Assembly (NCBI RefSeq): GCF_000016345.1
Contig: NC_009379.1
Location: forward strand, 310,001 to 374,000
Direction: 5' to 3'
Length of the DNA: 64,000 nt
From: Polynucleobacter asymbioticus QLW-P1DMWA-1
Lineage (GTDB): Bacteria > Pseudomonadota > Gammaproteobacteria > Burkholderiales > Burkholderiaceae
Numbering within the stretch: position 1 is the stretch's first letter; each line of letters starts with the position of its first letter. Both the position numbers and the translations under genes were made by a program. Positions 366 through 8,993 of this stretch are shown here, in pieces. Below the pieces are notes generated by a model. The model was not told where the DNA came from. It worked only from the letters and a program-made list of their open reading frames with translations, and did no database searches.

Positions 366-1208
366 ATGACTCAGATGTCAAATCCTCATAAAGCGCAGCC
401 TACTTCACTGAAAGCTTTAGTAGCGAGCTTAGTTAAGAATCGTCAGCTGGTTTATCAGATGACAAAGCGCGAAGTTATTGGGCGCTACAAGGGCTCAGTC
501 TTTGGGTTGGCATGGTCTTTTTTTAATCCGATTGTAATGCTCATTATTTATACATTCGTCTTTTCAGTAGTCTTCAAGGCCCGCTGGGGCGCAAATAGTT
601 CAGATAGCAAAACTGAGTTTGCATTGATACTTTTTGTAGGTTTAATCATCTTCAACCTTTTTGCAGAGGTAATCAATCGAGCTCCTGGATTGATTTTGAA
701 TAACGTCAATTATGTGAAAAAGGTAGTATTTCCACTAGAAATATTACCAGTCATTAGTTTTGGAGTAGTGCTTTTTCATGCGTGTATTAGTGTTGCAGTA
801 ATGCTTTTCGCTTTTTTGTTGCTGAACGGATTTATAAATTGGACGGCAATTTTTCTACCAATAGTGTTGCTTCCATTCGCACTCTTAATATTGGGGATTT
901 CTTGGTTTATTGCATCGCTTGGAGTATTTGCTCGAGATATAGGGCAAGCGATTGGCGTATTCACAACGCTAATCATGTTTTTATCTCCAGTTTTTTACCC
1001 TACTGCCGCTTTACCTAGACAGTTTCAGTTTTGGATATTGTTAAATCCCGTCAGTTTTATTATTGAGCAGGCTAGGGCAGTACTGTTTTTTGGGCAAATT
1101 CCAGATTGGCTTGGTCTTAGCCTGTATTTTATATTCGCCGCAATTGTAATGTTACTGGGATTTGCATGGTTTCAGAAAACGAGGAAAGGATTTGCAGATG
1201 TCCTCTAA
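366..1208 (+). CDS. wzm: O-antigen/polysaccharide ABC exporter permease (Wzm type)
   Basis: A 280-residue inner-membrane protein with about six hydrophobic segments and the ABC-2 permease signature region near residues 35-55 (REVIGRYKGSVFGLAWSF, then a proline-containing first membrane helix). This is the usual size for Wzm/RfbA permeases, which move lipid-linked polysaccharide from cytoplasm to periplasm. The stop overlaps the start of the ATPase gene by 11 bp, a typical translationally coupled Wzm-Wzt pair. A second Met four codons on (378) is a possible start. Substrate is inferred from context: the neighbouring genes build and terminate an O-polysaccharide. Capsule export cannot be excluded, but Wzt with a C-terminal extension favours O-antigen. 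Confidence 0.9.
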   Translation: MTQMSNPHKAQPTSLKALVASLVKNRQLVYQMTKREVIGRYKGSVFGLAWSFFNPIVMLIIYTFVFSVVFKARWGANSSDSKTEFALILFVGLIIFNLFAEVINRAPGLILNNVNYVKKVVFPLEILPVISFGVVLFHACISVAVMLFAFLLLNGFINWTAIFLPIVLLPFALLILGISWFIASLGVFARDIGQAIGVFTTLIMFLSPVFYPTAALPRQFQFWILLNPVSFIIEQARAVLFFGQIPDWLGLSLYFIFAAIVMLLGFAWFQKTRKGFADVL

Positions 1209-2565
1209 TGAAATAGTAATTCAGGTAACTGATTTAAGTAAACGATACGAAATTTATGATCGCGCAGGCGACAGATTAAAGCAATTTATTTTTCCAAAGC
1301 TAGCTAAGTTATTGGGAAGCTCGAAAAATAATTACTATAGAGATTTTTGGGCACTACAAGATCTATCGATTGCAGTTCAAAAAGGTGAAACTGTTGGAAT
1401 TATTGGCAGAAATGGATCGGGGAAGTCTACTCTTCTTCAAATTATTTGTGGAACCTTAAGTCCCACTCATGGTGTAGTAAAGGTAAATGGAAGGGTTGCT
1501 GCTCTATTGGAGCTAGGATCTGGTTTTAATCTTGAATTTACGGGCAGAGAGAATGTTTATTTAAATGCGGCTGTACTTGGTTTGACGGCAGAGCAGATAG
1601 CCAAGCGTTTTAGCGCAATCGAGGAATTTGCTGATATTGGAGAATTTATTGACCAGCCAGTTAAAACATACTCGAGTGGAATGATGGTTAGGCTAGCTTT
1701 TTCGGTAATCGTACATGTTGATGCCGATATTCTAGTAATCGACGAAGCTTTAGCTGTTGGGGATGCCTTCTTCTCTCAAAAGTGTATGCGCTTTTTGAGA
1801 GAATTTAAAAAGTCTGGTTCAATAATTTTTGTAAGCCATGACATTTCAGCCGTTAAAAGTTTTTGCGATAAGGTATTGTGGATTGAAAAAGGTAAGATGC
1901 TTCAATTAGCATCACCAAAGACAGTATGCGAATCTTATTTAGAGGCTTTTTATGAGGCTCAGCAGGGCAGTAGCACATCTACAAAATTGAAATCAACTAC
2001 TGCAAAAAATATTTTTTCAAATCCAGTTAAGGATCAGCGTTTAGATTTTATAAATACATCAAATCTCAGAAATGATCTAGAGATCTTTAAATTTGATTCT
2101 GCAGCGTCTTCCTTTGGAACGGGAGAAGCTAAGATTACAGATGTAATCTTGCTAGATGCAGGCGGGCATGCTCTTAGTTGGATTGTTGGGGGCGAGGAAG
2201 TTACCCTTAGAATCACTGCGCAGGCAATTAATAACATTAGCATGCCTATAGTTGGATTTTCTATAGTTGATAGACTGGGGCAAAACTTGTTTGGTGATAA
2301 TACGTTCTTGACTTATCGAGATCACCCATTGTGTCTAGATGCGGGGGAAGTTGTCACTGCGGAATTTAAATTTAATATCCCTCTACTGCCGTCTGGGAGT
2401 TATTCTATAAATACCGCCATTGCCAGCGGTGTTCAGAGCGATCATCGACAGTTGGATTGGGTCCATGATGCGATTATTTTTCAGTCTCACTCAAGTAGCG
2501 TTTGCACTGGCCTAATGGGAATTCCAATGCTAGACATAAATATGAATATTGTTAAAGGGCGTTAG
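1198..2565 (+). CDS. wzt: O-antigen ABC exporter ATP-binding protein with C-terminal glycan-recognition domain (Wzt type)
   Basis: A 455-residue ATPase. Walker A is at about residues 70-78 (GRNGSGKST), the signature at about 158-163 (YSSGMM), Walker B at about 177-183 (DILVIDEA), followed by SHD of the H-loop. Residues from about 290 form a separate beta-rich domain with little likeness to the ATPase. In known systems this Wzt-C domain binds the modified, for example methylated, end of the O-chain and licenses export. I chose the ATG at 1198 because AGGAAAGGA lies just upstream; an in-frame ATG at 1162 would overlap the permease by 47 bp and add residues absent from the family. The methyltransferase-ruler gene follows after 9 bp. 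Confidence 0.92.
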   Translation: MSSNEIVIQVTDLSKRYEIYDRAGDRLKQFIFPKLAKLLGSSKNNYYRDFWALQDLSIAVQKGETVGIIGRNGSGKSTLLQIICGTLSPTHGVVKVNGRVAALLELGSGFNLEFTGRENVYLNAAVLGLTAEQIAKRFSAIEEFADIGEFIDQPVKTYSSGMMVRLAFSVIVHVDADILVIDEALAVGDAFFSQKCMRFLREFKKSGSIIFVSHDISAVKSFCDKVLWIEKGKMLQLASPKTVCESYLEAFYEAQQGSSTSTKLKSTTAKNIFSNPVKDQRLDFINTSNLRNDLEIFKFDSAASSFGTGEAKITDVILLDAGGHALSWIVGGEEVTLRITAQAINNISMPIVGFSIVDRLGQNLFGDNTFLTYRDHPLCLDAGEVVTAEFKFNIPLLPSGSYSINTAIASGVQSDHRQLDWVHDAIIFQSHSSSVCTGLMGIPMLDINMNIVKGR

Positions 2566-2574
2566 GATCTATAA

Positions 2575-5500
2575 ATGCATCGCTCTGCAAAGATGTTGGG
2601 AAACCTTTTTTTTCAAACTTATTGCCTGAATAGGGGTCCTCTGGTGGTTCTGGATATTGGATCGCAGGATATAAATGGCTCTTTAAAAAATGAATTGCCG
2701 GATGAGATTAAATATATCGGGGTTGATTTTTCTGGGGGGAATAATGTAGACGTCGTCCTCGAGGATCCATACATTCTGCCTTTTGAATCCAACAGTATTG
2801 ACGCACTGGTATGCAGTTCTGTATTTGAGCACTCTGATTTTTATTGGGTGCTGTTTTTGGAGTTGGTGCGCATCATAAAACCTGGGGGACTAATTTATAT
2901 AAATGCACCTTCAAATGGATATATTCACAGATACCCGGTTGATAGCTGGAGATTTTATCCAGATGCTGGTCACTCATTAGCTTTGTGGGCTACTCGTAAT
3001 GGCTATGATATAAAGCTATTGGAATCGTTCATCCATGGAAAAATTAGATCTGCTGGTGAAGAGGGTGAGTGGAATGATTTTGTTGCAATTTTTGTTAAAG
3101 GCTCATCTAATGCAAATACATTTGATAAAAGAATATTAGACTCCATAGTAGATTATTCAAATGCTTATTGTGATAAAAATACTATAGCTAAAAATGACAG
3201 TTTTTATCCAGAAGATTTACAAATCACTAAGAGATTAAATATTGTTGAACTAGATTTAGTTCAGCGCAATAACCAAATAAGCGAACTAGAGCAATCACTA
3301 AGAGATACAAGTGCAGATTTAGTTCAGCGCAATAACCAAATAAGCGAACTAGAGCAATCACTAAGAGATACAAGTGCAGATTTAGTTCAGCGCAATAACC
3401 AAATAAGCGAACTAGAGCAATCACTAAGAGATACAAGTGTAGATTTAGTTCAGCGCAACAACCAAATAAGCGAACTAGAGCAATCACTAAGAGATACAAG
3501 TGTAGATTTAGTTCAGCGCAACAACCAAATAAGCGAACTAGAGCAATCACTAAGAGATACAAGTGTAGATTTAGTTCAGCGCAACAACCAAATAAGCGAA
3601 CTAGAGCAATCACTAAGAGATACAAGTGCAGATTTAGTTCAGCGCAATAACCAAATAAGCGAACTAGAAAAACATTACACCATTGAGATAAAAAAGGTGG
3701 AAATGATGTTTAAAAACTCTAGAAGTATGCGTTTCACTAAACCCTTGAGAGTGCTTGGTGATTTTTATAGAAGTATTTTTAGCGCAAAAGAACTAAAAGT
3801 TAAGAATAGTTCTTTTATCGATGAGTCACGTTATATATTTTTGCAATTGAGAAAATCTTTAACTAACTATGGGCTGCATGATACTCTGAGAAAAATATTT
3901 AATAAATTAAAGAAGGTCAAGACTTCTAAAATAGCATTTAAAAATACGAATAAATTAATTTCAAATTTAAAATATCAATTACCAGTTATTGACTTTGACC
4001 CGTTAAGTGAAGAATTTTCCTCATATCAGGTAAATAAAAAAATTGATCCAAAAGTCAAAGCCATTGCCTTTTATTTGCCTCAGTTTCATCCATTTCCAGA
4101 GAATGATGAATGGTGGGGAAAGGGCTTTACAGAGTGGACAAATGTCTGTAAAGCAACAGCTAAATTTATAGGTCACAATCAACCACATCGACCGATACAT
4201 TTAGGGTATTACGATTTGCGAGTTGAGGCGATCATGGAAGAGCAGGCAAAGATTGCTCAAGAATATGGGGTATACGGATTTAGCTACTATTTTTATTGGT
4301 TTTCAGGAAAAGTATTAATGGAGTTGCCTCTTATTAATATGCTCAATAATAAGAAAATTGATATTCCATTTTGTCTTACATGGGCAAATGAGAACTGGAG
4401 CAGAAGATGGGATGGGCAAGAAAATGAAATCTTAATATCGCAAAATCATTCGCTTGAAGATTCTGAAAATTTTATAAGATATCTTATAAAGTATTTTAAG
4501 GATGATAGATATATAAAGATTGAAAATAAACCCGTTCTTATTGTTTATAGGGCTAATATAATCCCAAATATTATTGATATAACCAAATTATGGAATAATA
4601 TTCTTATAGAAAATGGATTTTCAGGTATTTACTTAATAGCAGCTCAAACATTTGGCATTCGAGACCCTAGACCGCTGGGCTTTGATGCGGCAGTTGAATT
4701 CCCGCCCCATACAATTATTTCTGAAGAAATATCTTCAAATATACAAGGTTTAAATAAAGATTTTGAGGGTAATGTATATTGCTATAATCAGATTGTTAAT
4801 AATGAGGTAAAGAAATTAGAGCCAGAATATAAACAATATAGAGCGGCTATGTTGTCTTGGGATAATACTGCAAGAAGGAAAAATAACAGCCATATTATGG
4901 CTAATTTTAGTATTAGACGCTATAAGCAATGGCTTTCAAATATAGCAAGTTGTACAAAAAATTCTATCAGGCTAAATGAAAATGAAAAATTTATATTTAT
5001 AAACGCATGGAATGAATGGGCCGAGGGAACACATTTGGAGCCAGATACTAAATATGGTTTTAAATATTTACAAGCGACTTATGACATCCTTAAAAATTAT
5101 ATAAATCCTGAGCATGCTGAAATCATTAGAGAATCACAAGAGAATAGCATTGCCATTGTTGTGCATATTCATTACATGGATACGTGGGAAGATATTAAAA
5201 AAATAATTAAAAAGATATTATCCGTACATGATTCTGACATCTATATAACAATCACCAATCTTGAGCAATATCAAAGTATTAAAAATGATTTTCCTTCGGC
5301 GAATATTGAGTTGGTTGAGAATCGAGGAAGAGATATTCTGCCCTTCATAAATGTACTAAAAAAAATAATACATAAAAATTATGTTGCTATATGCAAAATT
5401 CATTCAAAGAAATCAGAATATAGATCTGATGGAGAAGTTATTAGGAAAGAGCTTTATTTTTCACTTATTAATAATGAGATAACTTTAGAGAAAATACCGA

Positions 5501-5823
5501 AATTTTTTGAAGTTAATAAAAAATTAGGCATGCTAGTGCCTGGGAAATACTTTTTGCAACATAACGATATAAATATGTACTTTAATCGTGAAAACATTTC
5601 CAAAGTATGCTCAGTGATAGGTGTAAATTTTAAGGAAAGTAAATTTCCTGCGGGGTCAATGTTTTGGGCTAGGCCAGCAGCACTTCAAAAATTACTAAAA
5701 CTGGAGTCTGGAGAGTTGTTTGATGTTGAGGAAGGCTTGGCTGACGGAACGGTAGCACATGCAGTTGAAAGGCTGTTTGGACTAGTTTCAGAATCAAGCG
5801 GCTTTTACAACATAGATTTATAG
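2575..5823 (+). CDS. Methyltransferase / repeat coiled-coil / WbsX-like / RgpF-like fusion, putative O-chain terminator and ruler
   Basis: A 1082-residue multidomain protein. Residues about 20-180 are a class I SAM methyltransferase (VVLDIGSQ motif I, VFEHSDFYW and KPGGLIYINAPS later motifs). Residues about 227-365 are nearly seven copies of a 21-residue heptad-type repeat (DLVQRNNQISELEQ core), surely a coiled coil. Residues about 490-840 match the glycosyltransferase WbsX / GH99-like domain (IAFYLPQFHPFPENDEWWGKGF, FINAWNEWAEGTHLEPD). Residues about 850-1080 match the rhamnan-synthesis RgpF-like domain (VENRGRDILPF, KIHSKKS). No signal peptide or membrane segment, so it is cytoplasmic or membrane-peripheral. 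Directly downstream of wzm-wzt. By analogy to WbdD, the methyltransferase would cap the chain and the coiled coil set its length; this is inference. Base composition is AT-rich compared with the backbone. Confidence 0.85.
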   Translation: MHRSAKMLGNLFFQTYCLNRGPLVVLDIGSQDINGSLKNELPDEIKYIGVDFSGGNNVDVVLEDPYILPFESNSIDALVCSSVFEHSDFYWVLFLELVRIIKPGGLIYINAPSNGYIHRYPVDSWRFYPDAGHSLALWATRNGYDIKLLESFIHGKIRSAGEEGEWNDFVAIFVKGSSNANTFDKRILDSIVDYSNAYCDKNTIAKNDSFYPEDLQITKRLNIVELDLVQRNNQISELEQSLRDTSADLVQRNNQISELEQSLRDTSADLVQRNNQISELEQSLRDTSVDLVQRNNQISELEQSLRDTSVDLVQRNNQISELEQSLRDTSVDLVQRNNQISELEQSLRDTSADLVQRNNQISELEKHYTIEIKKVEMMFKNSRSMRFTKPLRVLGDFYRSIFSAKELKVKNSSFIDESRYIFLQLRKSLTNYGLHDTLRKIFNKLKKVKTSKIAFKNTNKLISNLKYQLPVIDFDPLSEEFSSYQVNKKIDPKVKAIAFYLPQFHPFPENDEWWGKGFTEWTNVCKATAKFIGHNQPHRPIHLGYYDLRVEAIMEEQAKIAQEYGVYGFSYYFYWFSGKVLMELPLINMLNNKKIDIPFCLTWANENWSRRWDGQENEILISQNHSLEDSENFIRYLIKYFKDDRYIKIENKPVLIVYRANIIPNIIDITKLWNNILIENGFSGIYLIAAQTFGIRDPRPLGFDAAVEFPPHTIISEEISSNIQGLNKDFEGNVYCYNQIVNNEVKKLEPEYKQYRAAMLSWDNTARRKNNSHIMANFSIRRYKQWLSNIASCTKNSIRLNENEKFIFINAWNEWAEGTHLEPDTKYGFKYLQATYDILKNYINPEHAEIIRESQENSIAIVVHIHYMDTWEDIKKIIKKILSVHDSDIYITITNLEQYQSIKNDFPSANIELVENRGRDILPFINVLKKIIHKNYVAICKIHSKKSEYRSDGEVIRKELYFSLINNEITLEKIPKFFEVNKKLGMLVPGKYFLQHNDINMYFNRENISKVCSVIGVNFKESKFPAGSMFWARPAALQKLLKLESGELFDVEEGLADGTVAHAVERLFGLVSESSGFYNIDL
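3253..3669 (+). repeat. 63-bp in-frame tandem repeat, 6.6 copies
   Basis: Six full 63-bp units start at 3253, 3316, 3379, 3442, 3505 and 3568, with a seventh partial unit at 3631-3669. Each unit encodes 21 residues, three heptads, so gain or loss of a unit keeps both reading frame and coiled-coil register. Copies differ only at two silent or conservative sites: AAT or AAC in the Asn codon pair, and GCA or GTA (Ala or Val) at the last codon. Copies 1-2 are identical and copies 4-5 are identical, which suggests recent duplication. Confidence 0.97.
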
Positions 5824-5850: not shown

Positions 5851-6684
5851 ATGAGGGAATTTATTAATTATACCGATCAAAAATGGCTTGAAATGCTTTT
5901 AAAGTCAGTATCAAGCACCTGTGTTGATGGAATTAAATTCCCATCTTTTCCAAGCCATGAAATACAAAGCCAATTTGTTGGATCATCCTTCCAGGCAAGC
6001 CTTTCTGAGGCGAACCAGTTCTATTCGCTACTTAAAAAGTGCTTAATAAAAGAAAATTTAAAAATTAATGACGAGACTAAGGCGCTTGATTTTGGTTGTG
6101 GTTGGGGAAGATTTATGCGATTTTTTCGTAAAGACATATCGCTTAATAATCTCTATGGAGTGGATATTGATCCATCTATCCTTGAGGTATGTAGGTCGAC
6201 GGGGGTTGAGGGCATCTTATCTAAAATTTCCAATTTCGAACAATTGAAATTTTCTGAGAATTTTTTTGACATAACTATAGCCTACTCAGTATTTACCCAT
6301 CTTCCTGAAAATGTTCACCTATTTTGGATGCGAGAGCTGGCAAGAGTTTCTAAGAGTGGCTCTTTATTTATCCTAACGCTTGAGCCATTAAGATTTTTAG
6401 AATTTATACAATCCATAGATGAAAATAATCCTGATTCTGGTTGGCATGCAGGTTTAGTAAGGTTCAAAAAAGAAATTCCATCTTTTATTGATAGGTTCAA
6501 AAAAGGTGAGTTTGTTTACCTACCAACTGGTGGTGGCGATTACAGGGGGGCTGATATATATGGTGATGCAGTAGTTTCAAAAGAGTACATTGAAAATAAT
6601 TGGAGTGAATACTTTGAAATAATTGATTACATTGATGAGCCGCAGAAGTTCTGGCAAGCAGTTTTAGTTGTTAAAAGAAAATGA
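5851..6684 (+). CDS. Class I SAM-dependent methyltransferase
   Basis: A 277-residue soluble protein with motif I LDFGCGWGRFMRF at about residues 84-96, an acidic residue ending strand 2 (GVDIDPSIL) and the motif SVFTHLPE near residue 150, all typical of Methyltransf_11/25 proteins. A good ribosome site (AAGGCGG) precedes the ATG. It sits between the ruler gene and a membrane protein with which it overlaps by 4 bp, so all three are probably one transcript. In this setting the likely acceptor is a sugar of the surface polysaccharide or its lipid-linked intermediate, but no sequence feature fixes the substrate. Confidence 0.85.
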   Translation: MREFINYTDQKWLEMLLKSVSSTCVDGIKFPSFPSHEIQSQFVGSSFQASLSEANQFYSLLKKCLIKENLKINDETKALDFGCGWGRFMRFFRKDISLNNLYGVDIDPSILEVCRSTGVEGILSKISNFEQLKFSENFFDITIAYSVFTHLPENVHLFWMRELARVSKSGSLFILTLEPLRFLEFIQSIDENNPDSGWHAGLVRFKKEIPSFIDRFKKGEFVYLPTGGGDYRGADIYGDAVVSKEYIENNWSEYFEIIDYIDEPQKFWQAVLVVKRK

Positions 6685-8051: not shown

Positions 8052-8993
8052 ATGAATTTAAACAAATTGCCAGAAATTCCTTGGTACATGGATCTCGGTG
8101 CAAAGGCTCGTAATTTGTATAGGGATTGTCCATTGGACATTAAAAATGAGATTTCATTTTTTTTAGACCATGGATATGTCGTTCTCAAAAATTCACTTCC
8201 ACCAGAAAGAATAGAGAGTGCGCGAAATGCATTCTATAGGCATAAAAAAAAATATGCCAATATTTACGCTCGTCACGCAGATGTCAATGGATTGCAAAGG
8301 CGTATTGTGAATTTGCATATGGCCTTGTATGAATTTCAGGACATCTTTTCCCTGAACACTCGAGCATTAAAAATACAAGATTATTTATTCCAGTCGCCAT
8401 CAACTTGCTTCACAAGCTTAACATTTGAATCTGGTTCTGAACAAAGCATTCACCGTGATTCACCTTACTTTACAACAACCCCGGAATATTATTATTTGGG
8501 GGTTTGGGTTGCGCTAGAAAGGGTTGATCATCTTAATGGTGCATTAGAAATTTATGATGGGGGGCATCTTGTTCATGAGGTGGATCGTTTCGAAATATTT
8601 GAAAGGTATTACAAATATGGTGATCAAATTGATCAAATGGATCCACGTTTGTGGGCTGATTATCAGCAGGCAACAATTGAATCTTGTATTGCTAAAGGCC
8701 TTGAGAAGAAAATTGTGCCGATGGAGCCTGGTGACACTCTGATATGGCATCCCCACCTTCCTCATGGAGGAAGTGCTATATCCAGTCAAGGTAGGTCTAG
8801 ATTGAGTATTGTTAATCATGTTGTGCCATCAGGTGTTCCCGTATCCGGTCTCAATGTATTTTATAGAAACTCAAATCCACCTGATTCCGTAAATTATGGC
8901 TATATGAATCATGCTGATAGGAATTTTCTAATTCATAAAAATGTAGAATTTCAACATGCAGATCCTCAGCCGGCTAATGAATTTCGAAATTAG
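8052..8993 (+). CDS. Phytanoyl-CoA dioxygenase (PhyH) family Fe(II)/2-oxoglutarate oxygenase
   Basis: A 313-residue soluble protein. It shows the metal-binding facial triad of the family: HRD (HxD) in QSIHRDSPYF near residue 137, and a distal His in IWHPHLPHGG near residue 235, followed by an Arg (GRSRLS) that would hold 2-oxoglutarate. GGAG precedes the ATG by about seven bases. Members in polysaccharide loci are thought to hydroxylate or oxidise sugars or lipid carriers, but the substrate here is unknown. It lies among sugar-modifying genes on the same strand, 30 bp after the membrane protein and 28 bp before the epimerase. Confidence 0.85.
   Translation: MNLNKLPEIPWYMDLGAKARNLYRDCPLDIKNEISFFLDHGYVVLKNSLPPERIESARNAFYRHKKKYANIYARHADVNGLQRRIVNLHMALYEFQDIFSLNTRALKIQDYLFQSPSTCFTSLTFESGSEQSIHRDSPYFTTTPEYYYLGVWVALERVDHLNGALEIYDGGHLVHEVDRFEIFERYYKYGDQIDQMDPRLWADYQQATIESCIAKGLEKKIVPMEPGDTLIWHPHLPHGGSAISSQGRSRLSIVNHVVPSGVPVSGLNVFYRNSNPPDSVNYGYMNHADRNFLIHKNVEFQHADPQPANEFRN

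What the first reader, a model, noticed from the sequence alone, without database searches (positions are those of the whole stretch)
2575..5823. Putative methyltransferase-coiled-coil-glycosyltransferase ruler for O-chain length
Seen: one 1082-residue protein with a methyltransferase domain, about 140 residues of heptad tandem repeat, a WbsX-like domain and an RgpF-like domain, directly behind wzm and a wzt with C-terminal domain. Known: in E. coli O8/O9a the terminator WbdD uses a coiled coil as a molecular ruler and its terminal group is read by Wzt-C before export. Inference: here ruler, cap and chain-building domains are in one polypeptide, and the methyl end may be the Wzt-C ligand. The domain set differs from WbdD, so it may be an independent solution.
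Basis: partly seen in the sequence, partly recalled or inferred. Interest (0 to 1): 0.8.

Follow-up and report, generated by a model that had tools for sequence, protein, structure and literature searches.

The report
Sugar-chain ruler with methyl cap
A bacterium carries one large protein that appears to build a surface sugar chain, measure it with a helical rod made of nearly identical DNA repeats, and cap it with a methyl group that the neighbouring export pump is predicted to read; the kind of machine is known, but the repeat-built rod and a one-residue rule linking pump to cap look new.

Summary
In detail: window 2575-5823 encodes 1082 aa with a methyltransferase (MT), a helical rod of 21-residue (63-bp) repeats at 98% DNA match, WbsX and RgpF, directly behind wzm and a wzt with a Wzt_C domain. 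Cap, ruler and polymerase in one chain is a known format (Klebsiella WbbB and O7 ORF6; compare WsaE), and the rod ends in the signature seen in E. coli O8 and O9 WbdD, so this is not an independent solution. Two points go further. (1) Register-keeping repeats recur in relatives' rods (21 of 24 periods are multiples of 7), but listed E. coli O8 and O9 rulers do not vary in length, and 2 of 7 close relatives show no coil in my scan. (2) In 84 labelled wzt-terminator pairs the Wzt carbohydrate-binding domain follows cap chemistry more than polymerase; its lid residue is Trp with methyl caps (28 of 32 de-duplicated; 1 of 35 others) and mostly Arg/Lys with predicted anionic caps. The window has Trp, like Aquifex Wzt, crystallised with a methylated sugar. 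All evidence is comparative; no glycan, export or length assay was possible. New variant of a known kind.

The parts
366..1208 (+). wzm: permease of the polysaccharide ABC transporter
   Evidence: PF01061 ABC2_membrane 4.2e-25; Wzm 27-72% identical where detected beside Wzt in loci of the same genus
1162..2565 (+). wzt: ATPase with C-terminal carbohydrate-binding domain (start may be the ATG at 1198)
   Evidence: PF00005 2.2e-20, PF14524 Wzt_C 1.8e-37 at residues 316-453
2107..2520 (+). Wzt_C domain of the methyl-cap class
   Evidence: closest solved chains are Aquifex aeolicus CBD 8dky/6o14 (E 3e-6, 3.9e-6), then E. coli O9a 2r5o (7.6e-5) and 5hno (0.0049); clusters with Wzt_C of other methyl-cap loci
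2458..2460 (+). codon TGG of the predicted methyl-lid Trp (Wzt residue 433 counted from 1162), equivalent to Aquifex Trp362
   Evidence: alignments; coordinate; Trp362 role from PMC9445017
2575..5823 (+). fusion gene: methyltransferase - coiled rod - WbsX - RgpF, 1082 aa
2575..3174 (+). methyltransferase (predicted cap) module, residues 1-200
3217..3684 (+). predicted coiled rod, residues 215-370 (156 residues, about 232 A if one continuous helix)
   Evidence: own heptad scan, helices 213-293 and 301-380 in the model, length
3252..3668 (+). 63-bp tandem array, 6.6 copies = 21-aa unit (three heptads)
   Evidence: TRF; unit comparison
3718..3750 (+). rod-end signature SRSMRFTKPLR (residues 382-392), like that of E. 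coli WbdD of O8 and O9
4063..5079 (+). WbsX module; fold of GH99 endo-alpha-mannosidase/mannanase
5095..5799 (+). RgpF module (rhamnan synthesis protein F family)
   Evidence: PF05045 4e-33
5851..6684 (+). separate second methyltransferase gene behind the fusion gene (role unknown)
   Evidence: PF08241 4.9e-14

Best explanation
The gene makes a chain terminator fused to a polymerase for a surface polysaccharide exported by Wzm-Wzt. The C-terminal WbsX and RgpF modules extend the lipid-linked chain near the membrane. A signature of the S-x-S-W/M-R-x-T-x-P-L-R type marks the rod base there. The repeat-built rod of about 230 A holds the N-terminal methyltransferase away from the polymerase, so that only chains long enough to reach it receive an O-methyl group on the non-reducing end, which stops growth. 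The carbohydrate-binding domain of the neighbouring Wzt then binds the methylated end in a pocket lidded by Trp433 and licenses export. Shown: anatomy, repeats, relatives, Wzt_C class and lid residue. Inferred: terminal methylation, ruler action, oligomer, membrane anchoring, export licensing.
For: Domain and gene order match E. coli O8, where an MT-coil protein (425 aa; coil 249-298; SRSWRITQPLRW at 308) lies directly behind wzt, and O9 WbdD (592 SRSWRMTK). The strict rod-end motif is in 46 of 177 coil-bearing ORFs against 6 of 1972 others in the surveyed loci, and 40 of its 46 occurrences in coil-bearing ORFs lie within 30 residues of a coil end. Wzt_C follows cap chemistry: an own-like Wzt_C is found in 35 of 40 methyl-cap clusters (26 of 31 outside the window's own MT family), 0 of 14 sulfotransferase, 0 of 5 pyruvyltransferase, 0 of 3 DUF4915, 0 of 3 WbdD-type, 1 of 4 GT99-Kdo and 8 of 15 MT-plus-extra-domain. 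Dissociation: same polymerase (0.48) but sulfotransferase cap, L193, Wzt_C score 0.09; unrelated MT family and unrelated polymerase, L085, 0.53, about as high as the closest full relative L171 (0.54). Group permutation: Wzt_C p 0.0005, nucleotide-binding domain p 0.24. Lid residue: W in 28 of 32 methyl-cap against 1 of 35 other de-duplicated clusters, the best of 151 columns. E. coli with known caps agree: O8 W, O9 R (PMC3482155 calls O8 WbdD a simple methyltransferase and O9a WbdD a kinase-methyltransferase). Aquifex CBD crystallised with 3-O-methyl-mannose; W362L essentially abolishes LPS binding (PMC9445017).
Against: Terminal methylation, oligomeric state and chain length were not tested. 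The d positions R/T make a weak heptad core and the model breaks the helix at 294-300. Of seven MT-WbsX-RgpF relatives next to wzt (window included), two (L171, L174) show no coil in my scan and the others 49-156 residues. Two of four methyl-pocket residues differ in the window by my reading (Leu300 to Ser, Thr346 to Asn; Ala348 and Trp362 kept). In a nearest-neighbour test limited to partners with unrelated cap and polymerase sequences, Wzt_C did no better than shuffles (31 of 67 against mean 28.4). L132, L133 and L134 carry a separate MT of the window's own family beside wzt, so their high Wzt_C scores do not show independence from the cap sequence. The tree-based independent-pairs test had only 3 supported pairs and cannot reach significance. 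WsaE methylates independently of chain length in vitro (PMC2943079), so an MT-GT fusion alone does not prove ruling. WbsX folds like a hydrolase, so its polymerase role is unproven.
Confidence: 0.7

Rival explanations
1. The methyltransferase decorates residues along the chain rather than capping it, and the coil is only a scaffold that joins enzymes.
For: [quoted passage not shown] A second methyltransferase gene follows at 5851-6684, so methylation in this cluster need not be terminal. Two of seven MT-WbsX-RgpF proteins beside wzt show no coil in my scan.
Against: MT sits at the far end of the rod from the polymerase, as in the characterised Klebsiella and E. coli terminators (PMC11231755 Discussion). 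Wzt_C belongs to the class found with methyl caps and carries the Trp lid. The gene at the same place in E. coli O8 is a known capping MT.
Confidence: 0.16
2. Wzt_C tracks taxonomic or gene-cluster inheritance, not cap chemistry; the Trp/Arg split is a clade marker.
For: Clusters are related by descent; the nucleotide-binding domain also finds same-chemistry nearest neighbours in 54 of 67; the restricted nearest-neighbour test is negative; the tree test has too few pairs; some clusters with a non-homologous cap also hold a stand-alone MT of the window's family (L132, L133, L134).
Against: NBD similarity does not correlate with same chemistry (Spearman -0.016 against 0.371 for Wzt_C). Group permutation p 0.24 for NBD against 0.0005 for Wzt_C, unchanged after regressing out NBD. 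Within the window's own genus 16 of 16 methyl-labelled Wzt have Trp in the alignment (15 of 16, where L104 reads Gln) and the one pyruvyl-cap Wzt has Arg. WbdD and MT-plus-extra-domain clusters, whose cap modules did not join one homology cluster, share a Wzt_C class.
Confidence: 0.22
3. The tandem repeats are neutral minisatellite noise without effect on chain length.
For: E. coli O9 and O8 terminators show no length variation in the rows listed: 45 of 45 full-length O9 rows are 2127 bp (60 of 278 records listed) and 24 of 24 full-length O8 rows are 1278 bp (25 of 303 listed). No second strain with the window's gene was available.
Against: Repeats with a period that is a multiple of 7 residues recur in relatives (21 of 24), none at that threshold in the 120 C-terminal parts; at DNA level 16 of 82 wzt-adjacent coil ORFs have an array in the coil, all 16 with a period that is a multiple of 3 bp and 11 with a multiple of 21 bp.
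Confidence: 0.35

Closest known systems
E. coli O8 WbdD (methyltransferase terminator)
   Same: MT - coil - SRSWRxTxPLR in one protein directly behind wzt with a Trp-lid Wzt_C
   Different: 425 aa, no room for WbsX or RgpF; a separate glycosyltransferase gene follows; one length in the 24 full-length rows listed
E. coli O9/O9a WbdD
   Same: N-terminal cap enzyme, coil ruler, same rod-end signature, behind wzm-wzt
   Different: has a kinase and adds methylphosphate; separate WbdA polymerase; Wzt lid is Arg; trimer shown by crystal (PMC3482155)
Klebsiella O7 ORF6 and WbbB (O12)
   Same: terminator, coil and polymerase GTs in one polypeptide (PMC11231755)
   Different: O7: MT-kinase-CBM and GT2 modules; WbbB: beta-Kdo GT99 cap. 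The window has MT only and WbsX + RgpF. Their sequences were not compared here
Geobacillus WsaE
   Same: N-terminal 2-O-methyltransferase plus two rhamnosyltransferase modules in one protein, gene behind wzm-wzt (PMC2943079)
   Different: [quoted passage not shown] its sequence was not compared here
Aquifex aeolicus Wzt carbohydrate-binding domain
   Same: best solved match of the window's Wzt_C; Trp lid and Ala348 kept
   Different: Leu300 and Thr346 replaced; ligand of the window's domain unknown

Membership tests
Coiled-coil chain terminator of ABC-transporter-dependent glycans | cap enzyme at the distal (N-terminal) end of a coil | tested here: met
   MT 1-200, rod 215-370
Coiled-coil chain terminator of ABC-transporter-dependent glycans | gene beside wzm-wzt with a carbohydrate-binding domain | tested here: met
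   nine bases behind wzt with PF14524
Coiled-coil chain terminator of ABC-transporter-dependent glycans | coil forms an oligomeric rod | not testable with these tools
   single-chain model only
Coiled-coil chain terminator of ABC-transporter-dependent glycans | coil length sets glycan length and the cap is needed for export | not testable with these tools
   needs mutants and LPS gels
WbdD of O9 (methyltransferase-kinase) | kinase domain between MT and coil | tested here: not met
   no kinase family in the Pfam scan; only about 15 residues lie between MT and rod
MT-only terminator (E. coli O8 type) | MT + coil + rod-end signature, Wzt_C of methyl class | tested here: met
Single-polypeptide terminator-polymerase (WbbB, O7 ORF6) | polymerase GT modules fused C-terminal to the coil | tested here: inconclusive
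   WbsX and RgpF families at 497-1075, but their transferase activity is not testable here and WbsX has a GH99 fold
Methyl-reading Wzt carbohydrate-binding domain | Trp lid over the methyl pocket (Aquifex Trp362) | tested here: met
   Trp433, codon 2458-2460
Methyl-reading Wzt carbohydrate-binding domain | remaining methyl-pocket residues Leu300, Thr346, Ala348 | tested here: inconclusive
   Ala348 kept, Leu300 to Ser, Thr346 to Asn (read)
GH99 (endo-alpha-mannosidase) as the family of WbsX | same fold over the whole domain | tested here: met
   [not shown]
GH99 (endo-alpha-mannosidase) as the family of WbsX | hydrolase or transglycosylase activity and catalytic acids | not tested
   no residue-level superposition or assay available

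The most novel reading that the evidence does not exclude
Bacterial Wzm-Wzt systems use a readable cap code: swappable N-terminal cap enzymes (methyltransferases of several families, sulfotransferases, pyruvyltransferases, DUF4915, Kdo transferase, MT-kinase) on a common rod, matched by a Wzt binding domain whose lid residue is Trp for neutral methyl ends and Arg/Lys for anionic ends; and the rod itself is a length-evolving ruler built of in-frame minisatellite units, in the window three heptads each, so that chain length could change by slippage without breaking frame or register.
Probability: 0.45. Interest if true: 0.82.

Novelty: new variant of a known kind. Interest (0 to 1): 0.62.

Why it matters
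If the lid rule holds, the end group of an unknown O-antigen can be predicted from one Wzt residue plus the next gene, which makes cap chemistry testable genome-wide and predicts sulfate- and pyruvate-capped chains that my searches of the held library did not turn up as described terminators. The repeat-built rod offers a natural copy-number series for testing the molecular-ruler model and suggests how surface-chain length could evolve quickly in wild bacteria.

Tried and rejected
Independent-solution idea: rejected on published precedents and on the shared rod-end signature. First motif regular expression had wrong spacing and found 0 of 121; corrected (77 of 121, a loose pattern) and tested with a strict pattern and control. 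Natural length variation in known rulers: looked for in E. coli O9 and O8 and not found in the rows listed. Length variation of the window's own gene within a species could not be tested: the full-length gene was matched only in the window's genome among 186 genus genomes.

Restricted nearest-neighbour test of Wzt_C with cap and polymerase both unrelated: negative. Independent pairs on the NBD tree: 3 supported pairs (7 on all branches), underpowered; the lid went the same way as the cap in 2.2 of 3 on average and the other way in 0.0. Test of the prediction that the MT-plus-extra-domain group carries a kinase: fold searches were filled by methyltransferases, Pfam found no family in 4 of 4 pieces of that domain and the PDB profile search nothing relevant; inconclusive. 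Its layout (MT, about 270 aa unassigned, beta-rich domain, coil) resembles that described for Klebsiella O7 ORF6. A PQNI...LIDxEW stretch looks kinase-like to me from recall only.

Lid residue depends on the alignment in a few rows: all 84 clusters gave Me W 36 of 40 and 37 of 40; Kdo Q 4 of 4, Q 2 and R 2. Exceptions: methyl-labelled L104 Q, L195 R, L249 E, L250 Y; MT-plus-extra L242 W, L246 and L247 L, L252 V. In one search the helper sequence is numbered one residue off, so the lid prints as 363 there. Comparison with viral structures gave mostly generic methyltransferase matches and two giant-virus proteins aligned over 376-390 columns; not used.

Dropped rows: of 119 wzt entries, 84 had a cap family that I labelled and a C domain of at least 90 aa; 67 remained after removing near-duplicates. 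Labels come from Pfam scans of selected members applied by homology cluster, so not each member was scanned. Several sulfotransferase labels are weak: Pfam scores of L115, L181 and L185 are below the curated cut-offs and rest on the cluster; L193, L180 and L232 are above one. The MT-plus-extra group was set by hand after seeing cap lengths. Of the 40 methyl-labelled, 32 have a coil in my scan. L195 was left out.
Full report
What is there. The 63-bp unit is copied with almost no differences: the six full units differ at two base positions. The array therefore most likely arose recently by tandem duplication, and it keeps both reading frame and heptad register. The gene is AT-rich (33.5% GC against 42.3% for the window) and the full-length gene was matched in only 1 of 186 genomes of the genus, so I take it as part of an exchangeable cluster. 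The genome is one contig of 2,159,490 bases; size and gene content suggest Polynucleobacter, but no call named the organism.

Rod and junction. My heptad scan puts a rod at 215-370 (threshold set); AlphaFold2 gives helices 213-293 and 301-380 with moderate confidence. At the rod end lies SRSMRFTKPLR. A like signature ends the coil of E. coli O9 WbdD, of E. coli O8 WbdD and of the O99 protein. In the surveyed loci a strict form (with Trp) is in 46 of 177 coil-bearing ORFs and 6 of 1972 others, and 40 of 46 occurrences in coil-bearing ORFs lie within 30 residues of a coil end. It was not found in coil-less WbsX-RgpF relatives such as P0002 and P0037. I infer, and did not test, that it marks the membrane-proximal base of the ruler. 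Against a fixed design, two of seven MT-WbsX-RgpF proteins beside wzt (L171, L174) show no coil in my scan; the others have 49-156 residues, the window most.

Repeats in relatives. Among 120 listed homologs, 24 have an internal tandem repeat N-terminal to WbsX at my threshold; 21 of 24 periods are multiples of 7 residues; no C-terminal part and no shuffled sequence reached the threshold (binomial 2e-15, homologs not independent). At DNA level, 18 of 82 coil-bearing genes next to wzt have a TRF array, 16 of them in the coil; all 16 periods are multiples of 3 and 11 are multiples of 21 bp. Against a general rule, the E. coli O9 and O8 rulers show one length each in the full-length rows listed (45 and 24).

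Cap modules are swapped on the same chassis. Behind wzt I found the same kind of rod with other caps: sulfotransferase + WbsX + RgpF in P. sivasensis (L193), sulfotransferase + WbsX + other GTs (L115; L180), a pyruvyltransferase + coil beside a WbsX protein in the window's own genus (L093), other methyltransferase families with other GTs (L085, L091, L095, L096, L133; no coil was detected in L096) or with WbsX and RgpF (L132), a stand-alone MT-coil protein (L088), and GT99-Kdo and MT-kinase types (the kinase match is weak). MT-coil proteins also occur away from a detected wzt or not directly behind one (L110, L100). Of 119 wzt entries examined, 82 had a coil-bearing gene among the next three ORFs within 1500 bases.

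Does the transporter read the cap? I labelled 84 wzt-terminator pairs by cap chemistry. A Wzt_C like the window's (BLAST E below 1e-5) occurs in 35 of 40 methyl-cap pairs (the window included; 26 of 31 outside its MT family), 0 of 14 sulfotransferase, 0 of 5 pyruvyl, 0 of 3 DUF4915, 0 of 3 WbdD-type, 1 of 4 Kdo and 8 of 15 MT-plus-extra; with WbsX present it is 8 of 8 methyl (window included) against 0 of 8 others. After de-duplication to 67, the nearest Wzt_C neighbour has the same chemistry in 62 (NBD 54; shuffle mean 28) and Wzt_C similarity correlates with same chemistry (0.371) while NBD similarity does not (-0.016). Profile comparison gives blocks: the methyl families together; both sulfotransferase families with DUF4915; WbdD with MT-plus-extra; Kdo and pyruvyl alone; one cross-block value is high, MT24b profile against ST2 (114 bits), where MT24b still contained L195. 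Group-level permutation without L195: p 0.0005 for Wzt_C, 0.24 for NBD. L193 shares the window's polymerase (0.48) but not its cap, and its Wzt_C differs (0.09); L085 shares neither cap sequence nor polymerase (0.0, 0.02), only methyltransferase chemistry, and its Wzt_C matches (0.53). L133 also scores 0.53, but it and L132 and L134 hold a separate MT of the window's family beside wzt, so they are not clean cases. Results against: a nearest-neighbour test restricted to unrelated caps and polymerases was not above shuffles (31 of 67, mean 28.4), and the tree test had only 3 supported pairs.

A lid residue. The window's Wzt_C is closest to the Aquifex domain crystallised with 3-O-methyl-mannose, whose Trp362 covers the methyl group and whose W362L mutant essentially loses LPS binding (PMC9445017, passages read). 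The aligned residue is Trp in the window (Trp433). In the de-duplicated set it is Trp in 28 of 32 methyl-cap and 1 of 35 other clusters, and Arg or Lys in 28 of 32 of the groups predicted to make anionic caps (sulfate, pyruvate, methylphosphate, MT-plus-extra, DUF4915) against 1 of 32 methyl ones; of 151 columns this one is the best single-residue classifier (0.925). E. coli Wzt outside the labelled loci agree: O8 W, O60 W, O99 R; O9 (R) was already in the set. Caps of O60 and O99 were not checked in print. The anionic label of MT-plus-extra and DUF4915 is partly post hoc.

Mechanism. WbsX has the fold of GH99 endo-alpha-mannosidases, so the chain chemistry is open.

Comparison with what is known. 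The kind is known: WbdD, WbbB, O7 ORF6 and WsaE; for E. coli O101 an MT with a C-terminal coil is reported as a prerequisite for O-methylation, indicating terminal capping (PMC13168486, passages read). That Wzt-C recognises caps is known (PMC9445017). In the listings of searches of an open-licence library, and in the passages that I read, I saw no description of a WbsX-RgpF terminator fusion, of repeat-built rulers, of sulfate or pyruvate caps of this kind, or of a Trp/Arg lid rule. Key papers on Wzt-C specificity (PMC6791312, PMC4850311) and on the ruler (PMC4650267, PMC5321029) were not held, so the lid rule may be partly in print.

Noticed in passing
L193:6861-10781 (-), L115:7573-12303 (+), L180:6967-12135 (-): Sulfotransferase-coil-WbsX proteins next to wzt with an Arg-lid Wzt_C: predicted sulfate-capped polysaccharides.
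   Followed up: partly
L093:9692-14978 (-): Same genus: polysaccharide pyruvyltransferase with a coil repeat array of 147-bp period and a run of N, next to a WbsX-GT4-GT2 protein with NSWRITKPLRF near its start; Wzt lid Arg. Predicted pyruvate cap.
   Followed up: partly
L183, L234, L238: Caps of the DUF4915 cluster share the Wzt_C class and Arg lid of sulfotransferase clusters; DUF4915 may add a sulfate-like end group.
   Followed up: no
L202, L203, L205, L206, L208, L210, L213, L214, L216, L221, L224: MT followed by an unassigned domain of about 270 aa before the coil; Wzt lid Arg in these; layout resembles Klebsiella O7 ORF6, so a methylphosphate cap is predicted.
   Followed up: partly
L270:8295-9266 and L271:8288-9182: In two E. 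coli strains an IS1 element directly precedes a wbdD remnant (N-terminal part missing) and no wzm or wzt is annotated in the stretch shown, while wbdA remains.
   Followed up: no
[not shown]
   Followed up: partly
window 8052-8993: PhyH-type oxygenase behind the fusion gene; the cluster of G106 (L093:7854-8801) has a protein that looks like the same type in a similar place.
   Followed up: no
window 3227-3625 (-): A 132-aa open frame opposite the repeat array is most likely a by-product of the repeat.
   Followed up: no
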